A DNA stretch of 42,740 nt, taken from Candidatus Kaiserbacteria bacterium. Its GTDB lineage: Bacteria > Patescibacteriota > Minisyncoccia > Phycocordibacterales > Phycocordibacteraceae. The stretch is taken from contig JARIGM010000023.1 in NCBI GenBank assembly GCA_029288865.1, positions 67,039 through 109,778 on the forward strand, in the 5' to 3' direction. The notes beneath the pieces are model-generated. The model was given only the letters and a program-made list of their open reading frames with translations. It was not told the DNA's origin and searched no databases. Numbering within the stretch: position 1 is the stretch's first letter; each line of letters begins with the position of its first letter. Position numbers and translations under genes: made by a program. Below, in pieces: positions 3,142 through 21,062 of this stretch.

Positions 3142-4215
3142 TTACGCAACAGTGTACGTTCCGTTCTTCTGTCGCTTGAAGTAGCGAGGATCGTTCAGGT
3201 TCACCAAGATAGTGTTGTCCTTCACATAACGAACTTTCTTCACTGCCTCGATAACTTCGTCGCGAGTGAGCGGCTTCTTCTTGAGAATGGTCTTGATCAC
3301 GTCACGCACAACGCCTGGCTGGTATCCCCATTCTGCGAGTGCGTAGAGACCACGACCGACGAGCACGAAACGATCATCTTTGATGAGCTCGTTATGTGTC
3401 GTCGCGACATGAGCTTCCTTCGCGAAAAGTGAGCTGATGGACTTCGCAACATCAGAGAAGTGCATTGGCTGCGCGCCGCGCTTGATCACGAGATATGCGT
3501 AATCGCGGATGCCCTTCGTGCGGATCGATGGCGAATCTGCCTTGCCCCACTCCGCGAGCGGATTTGATCCGATGTTCTTTGAGAGAGAAAGCCAGCGCTT
3601 GAGAATCTCCTCGCTCTTGTATGCATCGTTAATGGTGCGGAGCTCTTCGAGGAATCGGTCGAGCATGTCGCCTTCTGAGAGAACCTCGTTATCAGGGAGA
3701 GACGCGTACAGCTTGGAGAGTGCTGCATGGACCTTCTCAGCAGTCGATGGATCGACATGCCAACGAGCATAGAAATCATCAGTCTCGCGCTCACGGAAGA
3801 ACGCGCTACCTACAACGAGGAGGAAACGGTACCGGTTACGAGCCTTTTCGTCTCCTGAGAGGTCTTCAAGGAGGAGATCTTCTGGCACGATGCCGCCGAG
3901 CATCTTGATGTGCTGGGCCAATTCGTCGAATGCAGATTCTGCATCGGTAAATGCTGAGGAATTGCGGATAGCCTCGATGCCAGCTGCTTCGATCTGGCGG
4001 ACACGCTCACGCGTAATACCCCATCGTTCCCCGATAGCTTCGAGGGTCTCCCGTTCGCTCGAGGTGCCAAGACCGAAACGGTATGTCAGCACTTCGCGAG
4101 CGCGGTCAGGCACTTCTGCAAGCAGCTTCTTTACGAGCGCAGCAGCGTCGAACGAAAGGGTTGTCTTTTTAGCGGCTGCCTTCTTAGCAGCAGGCTTTTT
4201 TGCGTTCTGTGGCAT
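3142..4215 (-). CDS. Sigma-70 region 4-like and HARE-HTH DNA-binding protein
   Basis: 357 residues from ATG 4213-4215. The frame extends upstream to a TTG at 4257, but that start overlaps the leuS stop and adds an unconserved-looking tail, so I prefer the ATG. After a Lys/Ala-rich basic tail (about 1-22), residues 28-86 form a sigma region 4 fold: LTYRFGLG, then the helix-turn-helix LEAIGERWGITRERVRQIE. Regions 2 and 3 are absent, so this is not a complete sigma factor. The C-terminal part, from about 250 on, contains a HARE-HTH/RpoE-delta-like winged helix (MHFSDVAKSIS, GRGLYALAEWG) and a second similar unit ending in the stop. By family knowledge such proteins bind DNA or RNA polymerase; the target is unknown. 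It lies 38 bases after leuS and is followed by a hairpin terminator. Confidence 0.75.
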   Translation of the reverse strand: MPQNAKKPAAKKAAAKKTTLSFDAAALVKKLLAEVPDRAREVLTYRFGLGTSSERETLEAIGERWGITRERVRQIEAAGIEAIRNSSAFTDAESAFDELAQHIKMLGGIVPEDLLLEDLSGDEKARNRYRFLLVVGSAFFRERETDDFYARWHVDPSTAEKVHAALSKLYASLPDNEVLSEGDMLDRFLEELRTINDAYKSEEILKRWLSLSKNIGSNPLAEWGKADSPSIRTKGIRDYAYLVIKRGAQPMHFSDVAKSISSLFAKEAHVATTHNELIKDDRFVLVGRGLYALAEWGYQPGVVRDVIKTILKKKPLTRDEVIEAVKKVRYVKDNTILVNLNDPRYFKRQKNGTYTVA

Positions 4216-4253
4216 AATTTGTTCTTTATTTATACCAGATAGGGTATTTATCG

Positions 4254-7130
4254 TCAAATAACAAGATTGAGGATGCGGCCCGGCACGTAGATGACCTTCT
4301 TGGCTGGACCCGCTGCCAGCAGCTCTTTGATGATCGGAATCTCTTCAGCTGCTGCCAGCGCTTCAGTCTCTATAGCGTCGTTTGGAAGCGACACTTCCCC
4401 GCGCTTCTTGCCATTAACTTGCACGATTACGGTCGCATGACTTGCCTGGAGCAGCGCCTCGTCAACCGTCGGCCATGCCGCTGCATGCACGCTTTGGGCC
4501 TCATCATCTTCTGTTGCAAGCTTTCCCCACAATTCTTCGCCGAGATGAGGAGCGAATGGTGCAAGCAGTATGAGGAAATCCCGGAAGGCACTCTGTGGCA
4601 CTTGTTCAAGCGTTTCAAATTCCTTAAGGGCAATCATGAGTGCTGAGATTGCTGTGTTCAATTTCAATCGTTCAATATCGGTGCGTACTTTCTCGATCGC
4701 GCGTGCCATAGCTCGCGAAGTTTCTTCAGTAGCTTCTACTGTCGAGACCTTATCTGCAACGCGCACGATGCGATCCAAGAATCGGCGCATGGATTCAACG
4801 CCATCGAGATTCCACGGATATTGTCCCGGCTCGTTGTATGGACCGATGAAAGCCAGGTACACACGGACAGAGTCTGCACCATATTTCACGACGAAATCGT
4901 CTGGATTGAGTACATTTCCCTTCGATTTAGACATCTTCTGTCCATCAGGACCCAGGATTATGCCGCGATTATTGCGGTGCGCGAATGGTTCGGAAGTCGG
5001 GACGAGTGCGAGGTCGTGCAATGCCTTGTGGAAGAATCGCGAATAGAGCAAGTGCATGGTCGTGTGCTCGCTGCCGCCGAGATAGTAATTGATCGGCGTC
5101 CATGTCTTGAGTCGAGCATCGTTTGAAAATGTTTCCTCATTCTTCGGATCTAGGTAGCGGAGGAAATACCATGAAGAATCTACGAATGTATCGAGTGTGT
5201 CATACTCTGGAGTCCAGCCCTCGCCGAATATGCGCTCGACGCGTTCCTTGAGTTCAACAGATGTCGCAAGTGGTGATTTGCCGCCCGTGTTCTCGAGCGC
5301 AGTGAAGTCCACGTCGCTCGGTAAGAGCCAAGGAAGGTGTTCAGCTGGAACGAGATGCGGTTCTCCTTCTGGGTCATACACGACGGGAATCGGACAGCCC
5401 CAGTATCGCTGACGGGAGACTAGCCAGTCACGGATGCGGAATTGTGTCACACGCTCGCCTTCTGCTGCCGCGACGATATCCCACTTTGCTTCTTGGTTCG
5501 GACGGCCTGTGAACTCTCCCGAGTCCATAAGGATTCCTGAGCCAGTGTAGGCATCCATGCCTGTCATAAGACGCTGCCAGATGATATCGAATTCCGCGTG
5601 CTGCAAGCCGGCCTTTACGACTTCTTCTTTCGAAAGCCAGGCGATGTCGTACTGAGCAGACTCCTCCTCAGAGATAGCCTCACGAGATGCATCCATGAGC
5701 TCAAAGAGCACCGAAGTCGCGTGTACGGTCCGATTAACACCCTTGTGGGCTGCATAGAAGCGACTCTCCGTAATGCCACCAAGCACGCGAACAGGCTTCA
5801 GTTCGGTGTAGCCAGTCTCTTCCCGAACTTCTCGGTACGCAGCTTCGATCGGATCTTCGCCATCCTCGATGCCGCCCGTGATGAACGTCGTCCAGGGCTG
5901 CGTCTTCCATTTCAGCGTGAGATACGTGTCTGTTTTCGGATCGTGCACGATGGCGATGATAATATTTCGGAATGTGTCTTCCTTACCGGCTTGAGGAGGG
6001 TTTGCGAGGTCAGTCACCTGCGGCACGACCACCTGCTTGATCGGCAGATTATACTTCTGAGCAAATTCGAAATCGCGCTCGTCATGAGCCGGTACTGCCA
6101 TGACAGCGCCCGTGCCGTATGAAGCGAGTACGTAGTCCGCAACATATACGGGTATATCAATATTTGTGAGGGGATTAAGTGCTGTCACTCCCTTGAGAAT
6201 GACGCCGGTCTTCTCTTTATTCTCGGAGCGCTCTCGCTCAGTCTTGCGGCCTGTGGCGATGCGATACGCCTCAACTTCTTGAGGGTTTGTCGTCAGCGGC
6301 AAGAGCGTATCCACGAGCGGATGCTCAGGAGCGATAACGACGTATGTTGCACCGAAGAGAGTGTCAGGTCGAGTCGTGAATACTTCAACGACGCCTGCAT
6401 CCTCATTTAGATCAGCACTGAATTGAAAGAATATCTTTGCGCCTTCAGACTCGCCGATCCATGCACGCTGCGCATCCTTAATTTCTTCGCGCCATGGAAG
6501 CCCGCCGAGATCATCTAAGAGGCGCTTCGCGTATTTCGTGATCAGGATGAACCACTGGGTGAGACTTTTTTCTTCCACTTCAGCGCCGCAGCGCTCGCAG
6601 CAGCCGTCGATAACCTGTTCATTTGCGAGCACTGTCTGATCGTTCGGGCACCACTTCACGGGCGCCTCTTTTCGCTCTACCAGATCGTGCTCATAAAGCT
6701 TCGAGAAAAGCCATTGTGTCCAGCGATAATAGTTCGGATCGCATGTAACGACTTCCTTCGACCAATCGAACGAGTTGCCCATTGAGCTGAATTGCTTGCG
6801 CATGTGCTCCATGTTGTCGTATGTCCATTTCTTCGGATCAAGACCTCGCTTGATGGCAGCGTTCTCAGCTGGAAGTCCGAACGCATCGAAGCCAATGGGA
6901 AAGAGTACATTCTTGCCAGTAAGTCGATGGTACCGGGCGAAGATATCTGCGACAGCAAATGCATACCAGTGACCGATGTGCAGATCGCCTGATGGATATG
7001 GGAATTCGGTCAACACATAGTATGGCTCTTTTTCAGAGTCATTGAGATCGGTTCGATAGATATCAAGCATTGCCCACTTCTCGCGAGCTGCTGCTTCTAC
7101 TTTCTGATGATCGTACGATTCTCGTGCCAT
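4254..7130 (-). CDS. leuS: Leucyl-tRNA synthetase with a Nudix domain inserted in the editing domain
   Basis: 958 residues, against roughly 800-880 for typical bacterial LeuRS. It charges tRNA-Leu with leucine. Class I motifs are HIGH (51-54) and KMSKS (732-736). A zinc-type CPND...CCERCG region is at 161-182. The CP1 editing domain starts near 225, with the Thr-rich TTRPDTLFG (252-260) and the conserved editing Asp350 in PAHDERDFEF. Residues about 385-520 are not LeuRS: they form a Nudix hydrolase fold with a complete Nudix box at 419-441 (G-x5-E-x7-R-E-V-x-E-E-x-G-Y). LeuRS resumes at ILMDSGEFTG (533). The anticodon-binding and C-terminal domains are intact. The start is ATG 7128-7130, 24 bases after the upstream membrane gene, with no Shine-Dalgarno. 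The frame is continuous across the insertion, so it is one polypeptide. Confidence 0.95.
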   Translation of the reverse strand: MARESYDHQKVEAAAREKWAMLDIYRTDLNDSEKEPYYVLTEFPYPSGDLHIGHWYAFAVADIFARYHRLTGKNVLFPIGFDAFGLPAENAAIKRGLDPKKWTYDNMEHMRKQFSSMGNSFDWSKEVVTCDPNYYRWTQWLFSKLYEHDLVERKEAPVKWCPNDQTVLANEQVIDGCCERCGAEVEEKSLTQWFILITKYAKRLLDDLGGLPWREEIKDAQRAWIGESEGAKIFFQFSADLNEDAGVVEVFTTRPDTLFGATYVVIAPEHPLVDTLLPLTTNPQEVEAYRIATGRKTERERSENKEKTGVILKGVTALNPLTNIDIPVYVADYVLASYGTGAVMAVPAHDERDFEFAQKYNLPIKQVVVPQVTDLANPPQAGKEDTFRNIIIAIVHDPKTDTYLTLKWKTQPWTTFITGGIEDGEDPIEAAYREVREETGYTELKPVRVLGGITESRFYAAHKGVNRTVHATSVLFELMDASREAISEEESAQYDIAWLSKEEVVKAGLQHAEFDIIWQRLMTGMDAYTGSGILMDSGEFTGRPNQEAKWDIVAAAEGERVTQFRIRDWLVSRQRYWGCPIPVVYDPEGEPHLVPAEHLPWLLPSDVDFTALENTGGKSPLATSVELKERVERIFGEGWTPEYDTLDTFVDSSWYFLRYLDPKNEETFSNDARLKTWTPINYYLGGSEHTTMHLLYSRFFHKALHDLALVPTSEPFAHRNNRGIILGPDGQKMSKSKGNVLNPDDFVVKYGADSVRVYLAFIGPYNEPGQYPWNLDGVESMRRFLDRIVRVADKVSTVEATEETSRAMARAIEKVRTDIERLKLNTAISALMIALKEFETLEQVPQSAFRDFLILLAPFAPHLGEELWGKLATEDDEAQSVHAAAWPTVDEALLQASHATVIVQVNGKKRGEVSLPNDAIETEALAAAEEIPIIKELLAAGPAKKVIYVPGRILNLVI

Positions 7131-13639: not shown

Positions 13640-14179
13640 TTATGCGTCGTGATTATCGATATGAATGAGCGCCATACGAAGCGCCTGCTTGGTGTACTCC
13701 TTTCGATCAACTCTGCCCTTGGTAAGGATGCCGATTGCTCCCTGGCCCGAACCGATCTTTGGATCAGCCGTCATGCCTGCCTTATTAATTGCCTCGGACA
13801 TATCAAGACCGTCTTCCATGATCATGCGAGTGATCTCGGTATCCGGAAATTCAAAAGCTGAAGAAAGTCCGAGATGCAGTTCGCTTCCATCATAGATAGC
13901 CACGACACAGACATCCATGTAACCGCTCTTCGTGTGCGGAACAGGCATAAGACCCGATTCGATCCCGACAGAATAGGTGCATTGACCGAATGCATTCTTG
14001 GCACGATTCACTGCGCCGTTAGTGGTTTCCTCGAGAGAACGTGGCTGATCTGGCACATCAGACGAAACATCAGTTCCAACCACCTCAAGATCTTTGAGGT
14101 GTGAATACTCCTGCAGTATCTCGCGTACCGCATCTACTTTTGCAGGATTCTTAGAACCGACGATCACCGTATCAGCCAT
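13640..14179 (-). CDS. yjjX: Inosine/xanthosine triphosphatase (YjjX/DUF84 family), inside the atp operon
   Basis: 179 residues. The start VIVGSKNPAKVDAVREIL is the substrate loop of the DUF84/ITPase group; further family features are the SLEETTNGAVNRAKNAF helix (the usual 'ET..GA..RA' pattern) and GIESGL. The C-terminal part IGSGQGAIGILTKGRVDRKEYT matches the family's end motif. By family it hydrolyses ITP, XTP or oxidised nucleotides to monophosphates, cleaning the NTP pool. It is placed 5 bases after atpA and 3 bases before atpG, so it should be made along with the ATP synthase. This position is unusual. Confidence 0.85.
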   Translation of the reverse strand: MADTVIVGSKNPAKVDAVREILQEYSHLKDLEVVGTDVSSDVPDQPRSLEETTNGAVNRAKNAFGQCTYSVGIESGLMPVPHTKSGYMDVCVVAIYDGSELHLGLSSAFEFPDTEITRMIMEDGLDMSEAINKAGMTADPKIGSGQGAIGILTKGRVDRKEYTKQALRMALIHIDNHDA

Positions 14180-17769: not shown

Positions 17770-20700
17770 TTATGGACTCGTCGTGCTCGCGTCAGAGGTA
17801 GTATCGGGTACGGGATCGGGTGAAACTGTGGTATCCGTTTCGGGCGTTGAAGATGCGGTTTCCGAAGAAGATCCGTCGGAATTTGTCGAGGCAGGTTCGG
17901 TTGTGCTTGCAGTCGTCACACTTGACGTCGTAACCATTACTGATCCTGTCTGTCCTGATTCATCCAATACTTTCTGAAGCTGATCGCCCGTGATGCATAC
18001 ATATGAACCATCAGCTTTCTTGACGCAAACATTATCGAAGCGGCCTGTTACGGCAGTGACCACTTGTGTGGTAATAGATTGCGCGAGCTGTGCAGATTCC
18101 TTCATCAGTTCTTGGACTGCCACGATGAGCGGTGCGATGAGACCTGGATAATCGACGGTAAGCGTGCCGTCAGGGGTAAGTGCAGTCGGACTTGAGGTCG
18201 AGACGAGGTTCGGGAACACACGCTGTACTTCCTGAGCGATGAGTCCAAACTGTTGTGCAGTGCCGCGGTTTGTGTCCGGCTTCCAATAGAACTGCACCGG
18301 TCGGAGTCCTGCGATCCCTGCAAGCGTTGAAGACGCATCGAGTTGAACAACATCTTGTTTCAGTCGCTGATCAGATGCCGTACAAGACACAAGTCCATTT
18401 GCATTCGTGGTAAAGCCAGAACAATTCAAGTACCCATCGAGGGTAAGGTTCGCTGTTGAGCCTCCCACCTCAAATAGAGTCGCTGGCGAGGTAGTGCTGA
18501 TACCGATATTTCCGGATTGCTTGATCGTAAAAGTCTTGGTGGTGCCGTTGATAAATTGAACATCCGCTCGAGCGTGCAAGCCCAAGCTTGGCAGACCCCC
18601 CGCCGTATCGTCATATTGGAAGATTCCGTTCTGCGGATTACCGTCTGAGACACGACGGAATGCGATACCGCTCGTGATGTTCGAAAGGCCGAGGCCAGAC
18701 ATTGCTGTCGCTTGGGAACCAATCAAGGTCGAGGCATTGGCTCCGGTCCATACTTCAAATTTATTTCCTGGTGAGGTCGTACCGATTCCTACGTTCCCTG
18801 CCGTCGTGATGAACATTGCTGAGCCTGCAGATGTCGGAGCGATGCTGCTTATGGAGTTCGGAGAGAACCCGATGCCGCCATATGCAGCAATCTGCAACGT
18901 GCCATTTGTTATGTCATTCTCGCGAGTGAGTCCGAATATTCCAACGTTACTCGCCGTATAACCCAGCAGTCCACTACCTGCGCTACCTATATTATCAAAG
19001 CGAATGTTTCCATAAACATCGAGCGCCTCAAGCGGACTCGTCGTAGCGATACCAACCTTACCCTTAAGAAGGGTCGTCGTAATACTGTCATTACCGAACA
19101 CGGCTTGATTGCTTGCGTAGACGTGAGCGTTATAGCCCACTGCGATGCTATTGGTAAGCGCTGAAGTAGACGCGATGCTGGAATCACGGCTTGCATTAGC
19201 TCCGATAAACGTCATGAAGGTATCAATGACTGATTGATTATCAGCGACCGTACCATATCCAGCTTGGTATCCGTAGGCCGTATTATTACTTGCCGTCGTA
19301 TTTCCGCGGAGCGCATTCACCCCGCTCGCAGTGTTATTACTTCCTGTACTACTGTTATAAAGCGCTGCATATCCAGTCGCGACATTCGCGCTTCCTGTTG
19401 TATTCCCATACAAAGCGTTCGCTCCGGAAGAGGTATTATTGGCACCGGTCGTGTTCGAATACATCGAGCTGATTCCCACTGCCGAATTTAAAGAACCACT
19501 AGTGTTGTTATAGAGCGCAGAGTAGCCGATTCCTGTGTTGTTGCTTCCGACCGATGAGTAGAGTGAGAATGTTCCTACTGCCGTGTTGTTGTTACCTATT
19601 CCGTAATAGCCGCGGAGCGCCTTATAACCGACACCGACGCTACCAGACGTCGTCGTAGCATATTCCATCGCTCCTTGTCCGACCGATGTGTTGTTGAGCA
19701 TGGCCGCATTCACGCTTGATCCGGCACCACTTCCCACTAACAGGTTCGTACTAGTTGCGTTCAATGACGCGACATACGGTGCAATATTGGACAATGTAAG
19801 AATATTGGATGCTGTTGATGTATCCCAATTATGGGCAGCAATATAATTTGCAACCTGTTTAGCTACCAGCGCGTAACCCGTAGTATTCAAATGTACGACG
19901 CTATCTGCGCGGAGTGATGTTGGAGGCACGTCATTGCTGATGTCGATGAGGTCTTGTGCCGTCGGTGTAATACCTGCATCTGTCAAGCCGTTCTGAACGA
20001 TGTACGAACGGATATCCAGATAATTATTCGGATAGGTAGCGGCAAGATACGCGTTGATCGCCATGATGGCCGTATAATTCGAGTTTCCGGACGGCTCGTT
20101 CGGCCCGTTCATGATCGACATGATGAGAAATCGTTGATGTCCCAGCGCCGCAACCATTGAGGCGATATTGGCTTCAACCGTTGCAGCATTCGTGAAATCG
20201 TTACGTCCTGACCATATGATGGTGTCGTAGGAATACTTATCGGGAGATGCAAGCATTCGTGAAGCGATCTGAGTACTTGTTTGTCCGCTGATACCGCCAT
20301 TGTACACATTGCGACCATTTAAAAGCCAAGAGAGTTGCTGGGGATATGTATAGGTGCCGCTTCCACCCTGGGTAAGACTGTCTCCCCATGCCGCAATATT
20401 GTATGCCCCCAAGTTTGACGTGCTGAGATACGTTAAGCCTAAGTTCGTGCGGGTCGTTGCGGCATCGCCCACATTCAGCGAACCACTGAGATAGCCATTC
20501 CCGTTGACTGAGAGACGTGCCGACGGACTTGTCGTGCCGATTCCCACGTTGCCTCCGGCAGTTGCCAGATAGGTAGATCCTGTAGAGGTAAACAACGTGG
20601 AGGAAGCCGCACCATTAAATTGCTGGAGGGCACTCCATGAATTTGCTGTAGTAGTCCCGAAGAGAAGCGAAAGTACATTCCCGCTTCGATTAAACGGATA

Positions 20701-21033
20701 GCTGAACGTAAGCGGCACCTCATACATACCAGCAAGAGCGGTCTGAGCACGAGTTGGTGTGAAATATAAGTTTGAAGTTCCTTCGTGTACGCCGTCTGTG
20801 GTGGTTGCGTACCAGACTGACGAATCCAATTTCCCCGCCACAGTATTCTGAAGGTTCGTCATGGCGCTAGTATCGATGCCACAGCTTGGATCGGTCGGAG
20901 CGCATGCAGGATCGAGCGTAGCACCTGGCGCATAGAGCGCTGCTTGTGCAGCGAGTGGCGTAATCAAAACGAAAAACGCTGCCAGCACCATGACTGGAAG
21001 CATACGTAAACGAGAAAGCCCGAACATACCCAT
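17770..21033 (-). CDS. Giant surface protein: signal peptide, SGNH hydrolase, YadA-head-like repeats, C-terminal peptidase S74
   Basis: 1087 residues from ATG 21031-21033, which has a TATGAT box six bases upstream; a GTG five codons further up is less likely. Positions below count from this ATG. A signal peptide (about 1-32, ending PLAAQA) is followed by a 'GNVGIGTTSP' module at 161. An SGNH/GDSL-like hydrolase at about 210-400 has Ser219 in WGDSLTQGG, GGISG, GRND (276-279) and His381 in DSVVHLNTTGY. Then come Asn/Gly/Ala/Thr-rich repeats (about 430-595) like YadA/Hep-Hag heads, three further GNVGI/GNIGI-type modules (near 658, 746 and 841), and a peptidase S74 intramolecular chaperone beginning ASDQRLKQD with the Ser887/Lys892 dyad. 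The protein ends in a Ser/Thr/Pro tail without an LPXTG or TM anchor. A trimeric, self-processed fibre is the family expectation. Confidence 0.85.
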   Translation of the reverse strand: MGMFGLSRLRMLPVMVLAAFFVLITPLAAQAALYAPGATLDPACAPTDPSCGIDTSAMTNLQNTVAGKLDSSVWYATTTDGVHEGTSNLYFTPTRAQTALAGMYEVPLTFSYPFNRSGNVLSLLFGTTTANSWSALQQFNGAASSTLFTSTGSTYLATAGGNVGIGTTSPSARLSVNGNGYLSGSLNVGDAATTRTNLGLTYLSTSNLGAYNIAAWGDSLTQGGSGTYTYPQQLSWLLNGRNVYNGGISGQTSTQIASRMLASPDKYSYDTIIWSGRNDFTNAATVEANIASMVAALGHQRFLIMSIMNGPNEPSGNSNYTAIMAINAYLAATYPNNYLDIRSYIVQNGLTDAGITPTAQDLIDISNDVPPTSLRADSVVHLNTTGYALVAKQVANYIAAHNWDTSTASNILTLSNIAPYVASLNATSTNLLVGSGAGSSVNAAMLNNTSVGQGAMEYATTTSGSVGVGYKALRGYYGIGNNNTAVGTFSLYSSVGSNNTGIGYSALYNNTSGSLNSAVGISSMYSNTTGANNTSSGANALYGNTTGSANVATGYAALYNSSTGSNNTASGVNALRGNTTASNNTAYGYQAGYGTVADNQSVIDTFMTFIGANASRDSSIASTSALTNSIAVGYNAHVYASNQAVFGNDSITTTLLKGKVGIATTSPLEALDVYGNIRFDNIGSAGSGLLGYTASNVGIFGLTRENDITNGTLQIAAYGGIGFSPNSISSIAPTSAGSAMFITTAGNVGIGTTSPGNKFEVWTGANASTLIGSQATAMSGLGLSNITSGIAFRRVSDGNPQNGIFQYDDTAGGLPSLGLHARADVQFINGTTKTFTIKQSGNIGISTTSPATLFEVGGSTANLTLDGYLNCSGFTTNANGLVSCTASDQRLKQDVVQLDASSTLAGIAGLRPVQFYWKPDTNRGTAQQFGLIAQEVQRVFPNLVSTSSPTALTPDGTLTVDYPGLIAPLIVAVQELMKESAQLAQSITTQVVTAVTGRFDNVCVKKADGSYVCITGDQLQKVLDESGQTGSVMVTTSSVTTASTTEPASTNSDGSSSETASSTPETDTTVSPDPVPDTTSDASTTSP

Positions 21034-21039
21034 TTCTAC

Positions 21040-21045
21040 ATCATA
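21040..21045 (-). promoter_or_regulatory. -10 box of the giant surface protein gene
   Basis: TATGAT, six bases (GTAGAA), then ATG 21033. It supports this start over the GTG at 21048. Confidence 0.45.
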
Positions 21046-21062
21046 CACTAAGGAATCAGACC

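What the first reader, a model, noticed from the sequence alone, without database searches (positions are those of the whole stretch)
5571..5978. Nudix hydrolase domain inserted into the LeuRS editing domain
LeuS residues about 385-520 form a Nudix domain with an intact Nudix box at 419-441 (5808-5876) between editing-domain blocks PAHDERDFEF and ILMDSGEFTG. All LeuRS catalytic and editing motifs remain. The Nudix catalytic glutamates are present, so the domain may be active. Aminoacyl-tRNA synthetases make Ap4A and related dinucleotides as by-products and several Nudix enzymes destroy them, so an enzyme carrying its own Ap4A or nucleotide clean-up is a testable idea (inference).
Basis: partly seen in the sequence, partly recalled or inferred. 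Interest (0 to 1): 0.85.

Follow-up and report, generated by a model that had tools for sequence, protein, structure and literature searches.

The report
Swappable Nudix enzyme inside leucyl-tRNA synthetase
An essential enzyme that loads leucine onto tRNA carries a second, apparently working nucleotide-cutting (Nudix) enzyme nested inside its proofreading domain; many tiny bacteria share this, the nested part is exchanged freely between lineages, and what it does is untested.

Summary
Confirmed. LeuS (4254-7130, minus strand, 958 aa) is a complete bacterial LeuRS with a Nudix domain (fold 385-523, Nudix box 419-441) nested in the CP1 editing domain. It replaces a short surface loop in the closest insert-free LeuRS. 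It is not an assembly error: the insert occurs in 16 of 39 relatives, at least 49 of 380 genomes of the phylum and 40 of 146 genomes of a Bacilli order. Across 45 insert-bearing LeuRS the catalytic glutamates are kept (434: 45/45; 437: 44/45; 438: 45/45), and so are the editing motifs. Both folds are predicted confidently (pLDDT 91).

(1) The insert behaves as an exchangeable cassette: within the window's genus, LeuRS bodies 77% identical carry Nudix domains only 33% identical; one shared origin there is rejected (AU p about 1e-77). (2) Some Bacilli and Clostridia carry a free-standing CP1 remnant plus Nudix beside an insert-free LeuRS; its editing motifs are degraded but the Nudix box is intact. 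(3) Other Patescibacteria LeuRS carry further hydrolase inserts (RBBP9-like serine hydrolase, HAD), up to five domains.

Best explanation: an active Nudix pyrophosphohydrolase, independent of editing. Ap4A clean-up is possible but unproven. I found no description in the papers searched.

The parts
4254..7130 (-). leuS, leucyl-tRNA synthetase of bacterial type with nested Nudix domain, 958 aa
5556..6023 (-). whole extra stretch, residues about 370-525, replacing a loop of about 10-15 residues in insert-free relatives
   Evidence: pairwise alignment with L035, L026, L027
5562..5978 (-). Nudix fold, residues 385-523 (strands, Nudix helix 427-439, C-terminal helix 514-523)
   Evidence: Pfam PF00293; AlphaFold2 pLDDT about 88-96
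5808..5876 (-). Nudix box, residues 419-441, GGIEDGEDPIEAAYREVREETGY
   Evidence: sequence; conservation over 43 and 45 relatives
5817..5831 (-). catalytic and metal-binding glutamates E434, E437, E438
   Evidence: 45/45, 44/45 and 45/45 conserved; role by established Nudix chemistry
5730..5744 (-). subfamily motif K463..N466-R467 behind the Nudix box, possible phosphate contacts (inference)
   Evidence: K 42 of 43, N 37 of 43, R 36 of 43 in the box-anchored alignment
6024..6458 (-). N-terminal part of the CP1 editing domain, residues 225-369
   Evidence: Pfam PF13603 at 222-374
6351..6377 (-). threonine-rich editing motif TTRPDTLFG, residues 252-260
   Evidence: T252 44/45, T253, R254, D256, T257 and G260 45/45 in insert-bearing LeuRS
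6072..6086 (-). editing motif HDERD, residues 349-353 (catalytic Asp 353)
   Evidence: H, D, R, D 45/45
5451..5555 (-). C-terminal return of the CP1 domain into the synthetase body, residues 526-560
   Evidence: alignment to solved LeuRS resumes at 527
6969..6980 (-). HIGH motif of the aminoacylation site, residues 51-54
4923..4937 (-). KMSKS motif, residues 732-736

Best explanation
The window encodes a working leucyl-tRNA synthetase (aminoacylation and editing sites intact) with a catalytically competent Nudix pyrophosphohydrolase nested at one permissive surface loop of the CP1 editing domain. The two activities are probably independent: LeuRS charges and proofreads tRNA-Leu, while the Nudix domain, with Mg2+ held by E434/E437/E438, cuts a nucleoside-diphosphate-X substrate, most likely a dinucleoside polyphosphate, a damaged or unusual nucleotide, or an RNA 5' phosphate end. 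The domain belongs to a mainly LeuRS-resident Nudix subfamily and behaves as a cassette: it has been gained, lost and replaced many times at the same loop. Shown here: architecture, conservation, predicted folds, exchange, and selection on the free-standing version. Inferred: catalytic activity and substrate class.
For: Domain matches; a confident full-length model that aligns to E. coli LeuRS 4aq7 over 782 residues, Z 46.9, rmsd 2.8. Catalytic glutamates E434 45/45, E437 44/45, E438 45/45 although the domain is otherwise variable, with editing motifs invariant in the same proteins. Patchy presence: 16/39 relatives, at least 49/380 phylum, 40/146 in a Bacilli order; 15 state changes on the LeuRS body tree of 88 rows. 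Body and insert disagree: L011/L018 bodies 77% and Nudix 33%; L011/L066 bodies 49% and Nudix 62%; window/L072 bodies 45% and Nudix 56%; one clade for the Nudix domains of the window's LeuRS clade rejected, AU p 1.1e-77. Free-standing CP1 remnant plus Nudix: Pfam NUDIX plus LeuRS editing domain, pLDDT 96, both folds recovered (2azw Nudix Z 18.2; E. coli editing domain 2ajg Z 17.0); Nudix dN/dS 0.003/0.154, 0.051/0.497 and 0.045/0.542, versus 0.022/0.036, 0.088/0.322 and 0.083/0.269 for the CP1 remnant.
Against: No biochemistry. No curated functional Nudix family reaches its cut-off, so the substrate is open. L014 has E437 changed to Q and a few inserts lose R433 or E425, so some copies may be weakened. 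Genomes that lack the insert mostly show no close stand-alone replacement, so the activity is dispensable. Most sequences are from metagenome-assembled genomes.
Confidence: 0.6

Rival explanations
1. Ap4A clean-up in cis: the Nudix domain destroys Ap4A/Ap3A made by LeuRS itself as a by-product of leucyl-adenylate formation.
For: aaRS make Ap4A and Nudix enzymes degrade it (PMC10148737). Ap4A hydrolases are among the nearest sequence and fold matches: Lupinus 1f3y, Aquifex 3i7u Z 15.5, Chlamydia CT771 4mpo, RppH.
Against: The two reviews searched do not mention LeuRS. Six other Nudix and two HIT matches exist in the genome. The domain also occurs free-standing on a CP1 remnant in genomes whose LeuRS lacks it. 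Insert subfamilies are swapped without regard to the LeuRS body.
Confidence: 0.2
2. Tolerated cassette: the loop is simply a permissive site where domains land by illegitimate recombination, and the Nudix domain is a neutral passenger or structural spacer.
For: Patchy distribution, replacement by other subfamilies, several other hydrolase folds at other LeuRS loops, and one apparent partly deleted insert (G488).
Against: Catalytic residues would decay in a neutral passenger but are kept almost without exception; the free-standing Nudix is under stronger purifying selection than its CP1 remnant.
Confidence: 0.2
3. Protection or quality control of LeuRS: the Nudix domain destroys nucleotide-like inhibitors of LeuRS, such as aminoacyl-nucleotide antibiotics of the agrocin 84 / TM84 kind, and fast cassette turnover reflects changing inhibitors.
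For: Rapid exchange at one site; other intact hydrolase domains (serine hydrolase, HAD) in related LeuRS; LeuRS is a known target of a nucleotide antibiotic (structure 3zgz; PMC5059758).
Against: No evidence for such inhibitors in these habitats. TM84-type phosphoramidates are not known Nudix substrates (own knowledge). The domain is also found in a few genomes away from LeuRS.
Confidence: 0.1
4. Assembly or annotation artefact joining two genes.
For: None found.
Against: Uninterrupted ORF, and the same junction in dozens of independent assemblies of several classes and phyla, with matching empty sites in relatives.
Confidence: 0.01

Closest known systems
Bacterial leucyl-tRNA synthetase (E. 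coli 4aq7, T. thermophilus 1h3n)
   Same: Whole synthetase body, HIGH, KMSKS, CP1 editing domain with T-rich motif and catalytic Asp; 782 of 958 residues superpose
   Different: No Nudix domain in any solved LeuRS matched; here about 155 residues replace a CP1 loop
Nudix hydrolases of the Ap4A hydrolase / RppH / NudI / MutT range (3i7u, 4s2x, 6dt3, 2azw)
   Same: Nudix box, fold and metal-binding glutamates; nearest matches by sequence and fold
   Different: No curated family cut-off reached; Nudix box ends in Tyr; subfamily motif K..NR; resident inside LeuRS
Free-standing CP1 remnant plus Nudix proteins of Bacilli and Clostridia (L089, L092, L094; found here)
   Same: Nudix nested in a LeuRS editing-domain fold in the same way
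   Different: No synthetase body; T-rich motif lost and the Asp motif degraded, while the Nudix box is intact
aaRS with other accessory domains, e.g. IleRS with a GNAT domain (NCBIfam NF040702, seen)
   Same: A class I editing synthetase carrying an extra enzyme domain
   Different: A different enzyme fold on a different synthetase

Membership tests
Bacterial LeuRS (TIGR00396) | Score above the curated cut-off | tested here: met
   876.8 bits against 548.4
Bacterial LeuRS (TIGR00396) | HIGH and KMSKS motifs | tested here: met
   HIGH 51-54, KMSKS 732-736; conserved across relatives
Bacterial LeuRS (TIGR00396) | CP1 editing site: T-rich motif and catalytic Asp | tested here: met
   TTRPDTLFG 252-260 and HDERD 349-353
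Bacterial LeuRS (TIGR00396) | Aminoacylation and editing activity | not testable with these tools
   needs biochemistry
Nudix hydrolase superfamily | Nudix box GX5EX7REUXEEXGU | tested here: met
   GGIEDGEDPIEAAYREVREETGY at 419-441; only the last U is Tyr instead of I/L/V
Nudix hydrolase superfamily | Nudix fold | tested here: met
   PF00293 58.6 bits against 21.1; confident model 385-523; the homologous nested domain of L089 gives Z 18.2 to 2azw
Nudix hydrolase superfamily | Metal-dependent hydrolysis of NDP-X | not testable with these tools
   needs biochemistry; glutamates conserved 44-45 of 45
Ap4A hydrolase (Nudix, asymmetrical) | Clear placement in an Ap4A-hydrolase family | tested here: inconclusive
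   Weak similarity to 1f3y and 3i7u; no curated NCBIfam cut-off reached
RNA pyrophosphohydrolase RppH | Score above the curated cut-off | tested here: not met
   best 29.3 bits against 259
Intein or other self-removing insert | Splicing (Hint) domain in the insert | tested here: not met
   Only NUDIX is matched in the insert by Pfam

The most novel reading that the evidence does not exclude
The LeuRS of Patescibacteria, and of some Bacilli, is a scaffold on which interchangeable, catalytically intact hydrolase cassettes (Nudix, RBBP9-like serine hydrolase, HAD phosphatase) are mounted at several surface loops, giving an essential synthetase extra, lineage-specific clean-up or protective activities. 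The CP1 plus Nudix module has been released as a separate protein in which the editing site degraded and the Nudix activity is what selection keeps.
Probability: 0.35. Interest if true: 0.88.

Novelty: new variant of a known kind. Interest (0 to 1): 0.74.

Why it matters
Domain insertions that keep their own active site inside an essential, slowly evolving enzyme are rare. Here one has been exchanged many times at one loop while both enzymes stayed intact, giving a natural experiment on how nested enzymes evolve. If the Nudix domain acts on Ap4A or related nucleotides, synthesis and removal of an alarmone would sit in one polypeptide, which would bear on the old question whether Ap4A is a signal or a waste product of tRNA charging. 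It also warns annotators that leucine--tRNA ligase in these tiny genomes can hide several further enzymes.

Tried and rejected
Assembly fusion: rejected (many independent genomes with empty-site relatives). Intein: no splicing domain. Degenerate Nudix: rejected by conservation. A phage source for the cassette: only box-level Nudix matches in viral contigs and none in phage records at E 1e-8. Assignment to a known Nudix function by curated families: nothing reached a cut-off. Literature: LeuRS with Nudix, Patescibacteria with LeuRS, synthetase with Nudix domain and related searches gave no description; the library is open-access only, so an earlier mention elsewhere is possible. Geometry between the Nudix, editing and aminoacylation sites could not be measured because model coordinates are not exposed. 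The first Nudix tree held duplicate rows and was replaced. The CP1-core dN/dS columns of the embedded pairs rest on rough boundaries and are not used. The 45-row count for N466/R467 suffers from alignment shifts; the box-anchored count is used instead.

Full report
Observation. The window holds one uninterrupted leuS ORF, 4254-7130 on the minus strand, 958 aa. It is a bacterial-type LeuRS well above the curated cut-off (TIGR00396 876.8 bits against 548.4) and the only full-length LeuRS of its genome (842 kb, 36 contigs, 100% complete). Pfam places NUDIX at residues 390-508 directly behind the LeuRS editing-domain match at 222-374 (E 2.6e-14). Solved LeuRS align to residues 4-370 and again from 527, and the stretch between is unmatched. 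The Nudix box lies at 419-441, as reported. The only departure from the textbook motif is Tyr at the last position.

Anatomy. AlphaFold2 with an alignment of 55 LeuRS gave mean pLDDT 91.4 and pTM 0.82; residues 385-523 form the Nudix strands, the Nudix helix 427-439 and a C-terminal helix at high confidence. The rest superposes on E. coli LeuRS 4aq7 over 782 residues, Z 46.9, rmsd 2.8. In the closest insert-free LeuRS body (L035, 69% identical) the sequence LPIVSVIESPDPLLTDSAFAYTDNGILTNSGEF runs straight through, so the insert replaces a short loop.

Not an artefact, and widespread. The insert is found in 16 of 39 relatives, in at least 49 of 380 genomes drawn from the phylum (my count of matches inside LeuRS-sized frames), and in 40 of 146 genomes of a Bacilli order. 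A scan of GTDB species genomes found it in Patescibacteria lineages (Taylor-, Magasanik-, Buchanan-, Moranii-, Berkel-, Saccharibacteria), in Bacilli and one Clostridia metagenome genome, and in a bacterial-type LeuRS of a Pacearchaeota genome. Of the 45 best loci of that scan (L066-L110), 39 lie in a LeuRS frame read directly and one more in a genome that reads TGA as sense (L096); three are on free-standing CP1 remnants and two on short proteins. By this sample the Nudix subfamily is mainly resident in LeuRS, with the reservation that the query was itself a LeuRS insert.

Conservation. In 45 insert-bearing LeuRS, E434, E437 and E438 are kept in 45, 44 and 45, G440 in 45 and W498 in 45, while the editing motifs TTRPDT and HDERD and the HIGH and KMSKS motifs are as intact as in insert-free LeuRS. 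A subfamily motif K..NR follows the box (K 42 of 43, N 37 of 43, R 36 of 43). Elsewhere the domain is variable: mean column identity 45% in a diverse set. Keeping the active site in a fast-changing domain argues for activity. L014 (E437Q) is the clearest exception.

An exchangeable cassette. On a tree of LeuRS bodies with the insert columns removed, presence and absence change 15 times over 88 rows, and the LeuRS of the window's genus form a fully supported clade that mixes both states. The Nudix domains of that clade do not group: 9 changes against a shuffled mean of 9.5, and one clade is rejected with AU p 1.1e-77. Pairs show it plainly: L011 and L018 have bodies 77% identical and Nudix domains 33% identical; L011 and L066 have bodies 49% and Nudix 62%; the window and L072 have bodies 45% and Nudix 56%. 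So the same loop has repeatedly lost, gained or replaced Nudix domains. No viral source was found. The LeuRS body tree is FastTree and the Nudix tree is short and partly unresolved, but the identity pairs do not depend on trees.

A natural dissection. In some Bacilli and Clostridia (L089, L092, L094) a free-standing protein of 276-292 aa consists of the LeuRS editing domain remnant with the Nudix nested in it (Pfam NUDIX plus PF13603), while the same genomes carry an ordinary LeuRS without the insert. AlphaFold2 gives pLDDT 96.0. VIA-align finds both the E. coli editing domain (2ajg, Z 17.0, 124 residues, 2.0 A, spanning the two ends) and Nudix proteins (2azw, Z 18.2; Ap4A hydrolase 3i7u, Z 15.5). 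Its T-rich motif is lost and HDERD is degraded to HIEKD or HNQEH, while the Nudix box is intact. Pairwise dN/dS for the Nudix part is 0.003/0.154, 0.051/0.497 and 0.045/0.542, against 0.022/0.036, 0.088/0.322 and 0.083/0.269 for the CP1 remnant. In these proteins selection keeps the Nudix enzyme more than the editing site, which argues that the Nudix role does not depend on aminoacylation or editing in cis. It is rare: 4 of 117 genomes of that family.

More hydrolases in the same synthetase. Several Patescibacteria LeuRS of 1,125-1,702 aa also carry a serine hydrolase of the RBBP9/YdeN type (PF06821), either near the start of CP1 or in the body; most keep the GxSxG nucleophile motif. Two carry a HAD domain with DFDGV. 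One, L068, holds three Nudix domains, an alpha/beta hydrolase and a HAD domain in 1,702 aa. L082 and L083 carry the Nudix at other CP1 positions. A search with the serine-hydrolase insert found it inside LeuRS-sized frames in roughly 19 of 333 genomes (my count, frames not all read). I did not follow these further.

What it does. The best-supported reading is an independent, active Nudix pyrophosphohydrolase carried by LeuRS. Neither curated families nor folds fix the substrate: weak matches go to RppH, dihydroneopterin triphosphate diphosphatase, NudI and Ap4A hydrolases. The Ap4A idea is chemically reasonable, since synthetases make Ap4A and Nudix enzymes cut it (PMC10148737), but it is not singled out: the genome has six other Nudix matches and two HIT matches, and the two Ap4A reviews searched do not mention LeuRS.

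Novelty. Searches for LeuRS with Nudix, for Patescibacteria LeuRS and for synthetases with Nudix domains returned no description; only open-access papers are held. Extra domains on synthetases are a known kind, so I rate it a new variant. The exchange of the cassette, the free-standing CP1 plus Nudix protein and the multi-hydrolase LeuRS raise the interest.

Noticed in passing
L062, L066, L072, L073, L081, L082, L084, L068 (LeuRS ORFs): RBBP9/YdeN-type serine hydrolase (PF06821) inserted in LeuRS besides the Nudix domain, most with an intact GxSxG motif; RBBP9-like enzymes can cut aminoacyl esters (own knowledge), which would suit an editing role.
   Followed up: partly
L068:1286-6391: A 1,702 aa LeuRS of a Taylorbacteria genome with three Nudix domains, an alpha/beta hydrolase and a HAD phosphatase domain.
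   Followed up: partly
L091 residues 527-681: HAD_2 domain with DFDGV motif inserted in a LeuRS behind the Nudix domain.
   Followed up: no
L089:3683-4510, L092:3689-4522, L094:3632-4507: Free-standing LeuRS editing-domain remnant with nested Nudix in Bacilli and Clostridia genomes whose LeuRS lacks the insert.
   Followed up: yes
L082, L083: Nudix domain inserted at other positions of the CP1 domain than in the window.
   Followed up: partly
G332 contig C11 175226-176590: Two Nudix matches in one LeuRS-sized frame of 1,123 aa.
   Followed up: no
L098: Bacterial-type LeuRS with Nudix insert on a 62 kb contig of a Pacearchaeota genome; horizontal transfer or mis-binning.
   Followed up: no
L024 (G010 contig C6) and L088: Short stand-alone Nudix proteins nested in the tree of LeuRS inserts, with linkers like those of LeuRS inserts.
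   Followed up: partly
G488 contig C2 23245-23784: LeuRS of 851 aa whose alignment keeps only the edges of the insert (query 2-97 and 210-296), apparently a partly deleted Nudix cassette.
   Followed up: no
window 13640-14179 (-): A PF01931 (NTPase_I-T, DUF84) inosine/xanthosine triphosphatase-like gene sits between the genes for the ATP synthase gamma and alpha subunits.
   Followed up: partly
window 3142-4257 (-): A sigma-70 region 4 protein of unusual make-up directly downstream of leuS, overlapping it by 4 bases.
   Followed up: no
window 17770-21048 (-): A 1,092 aa protein with a GDSL lipase domain and a C-terminal endosialidase-type chaperone (Peptidase_S74), a tail-fibre-like make-up, next to the ATP synthase genes.
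   Followed up: no
G366 contig C14 152668-152946: A weak serine-hydrolase match lies in an open frame reported as 24,995 aa long.
   Followed up: no
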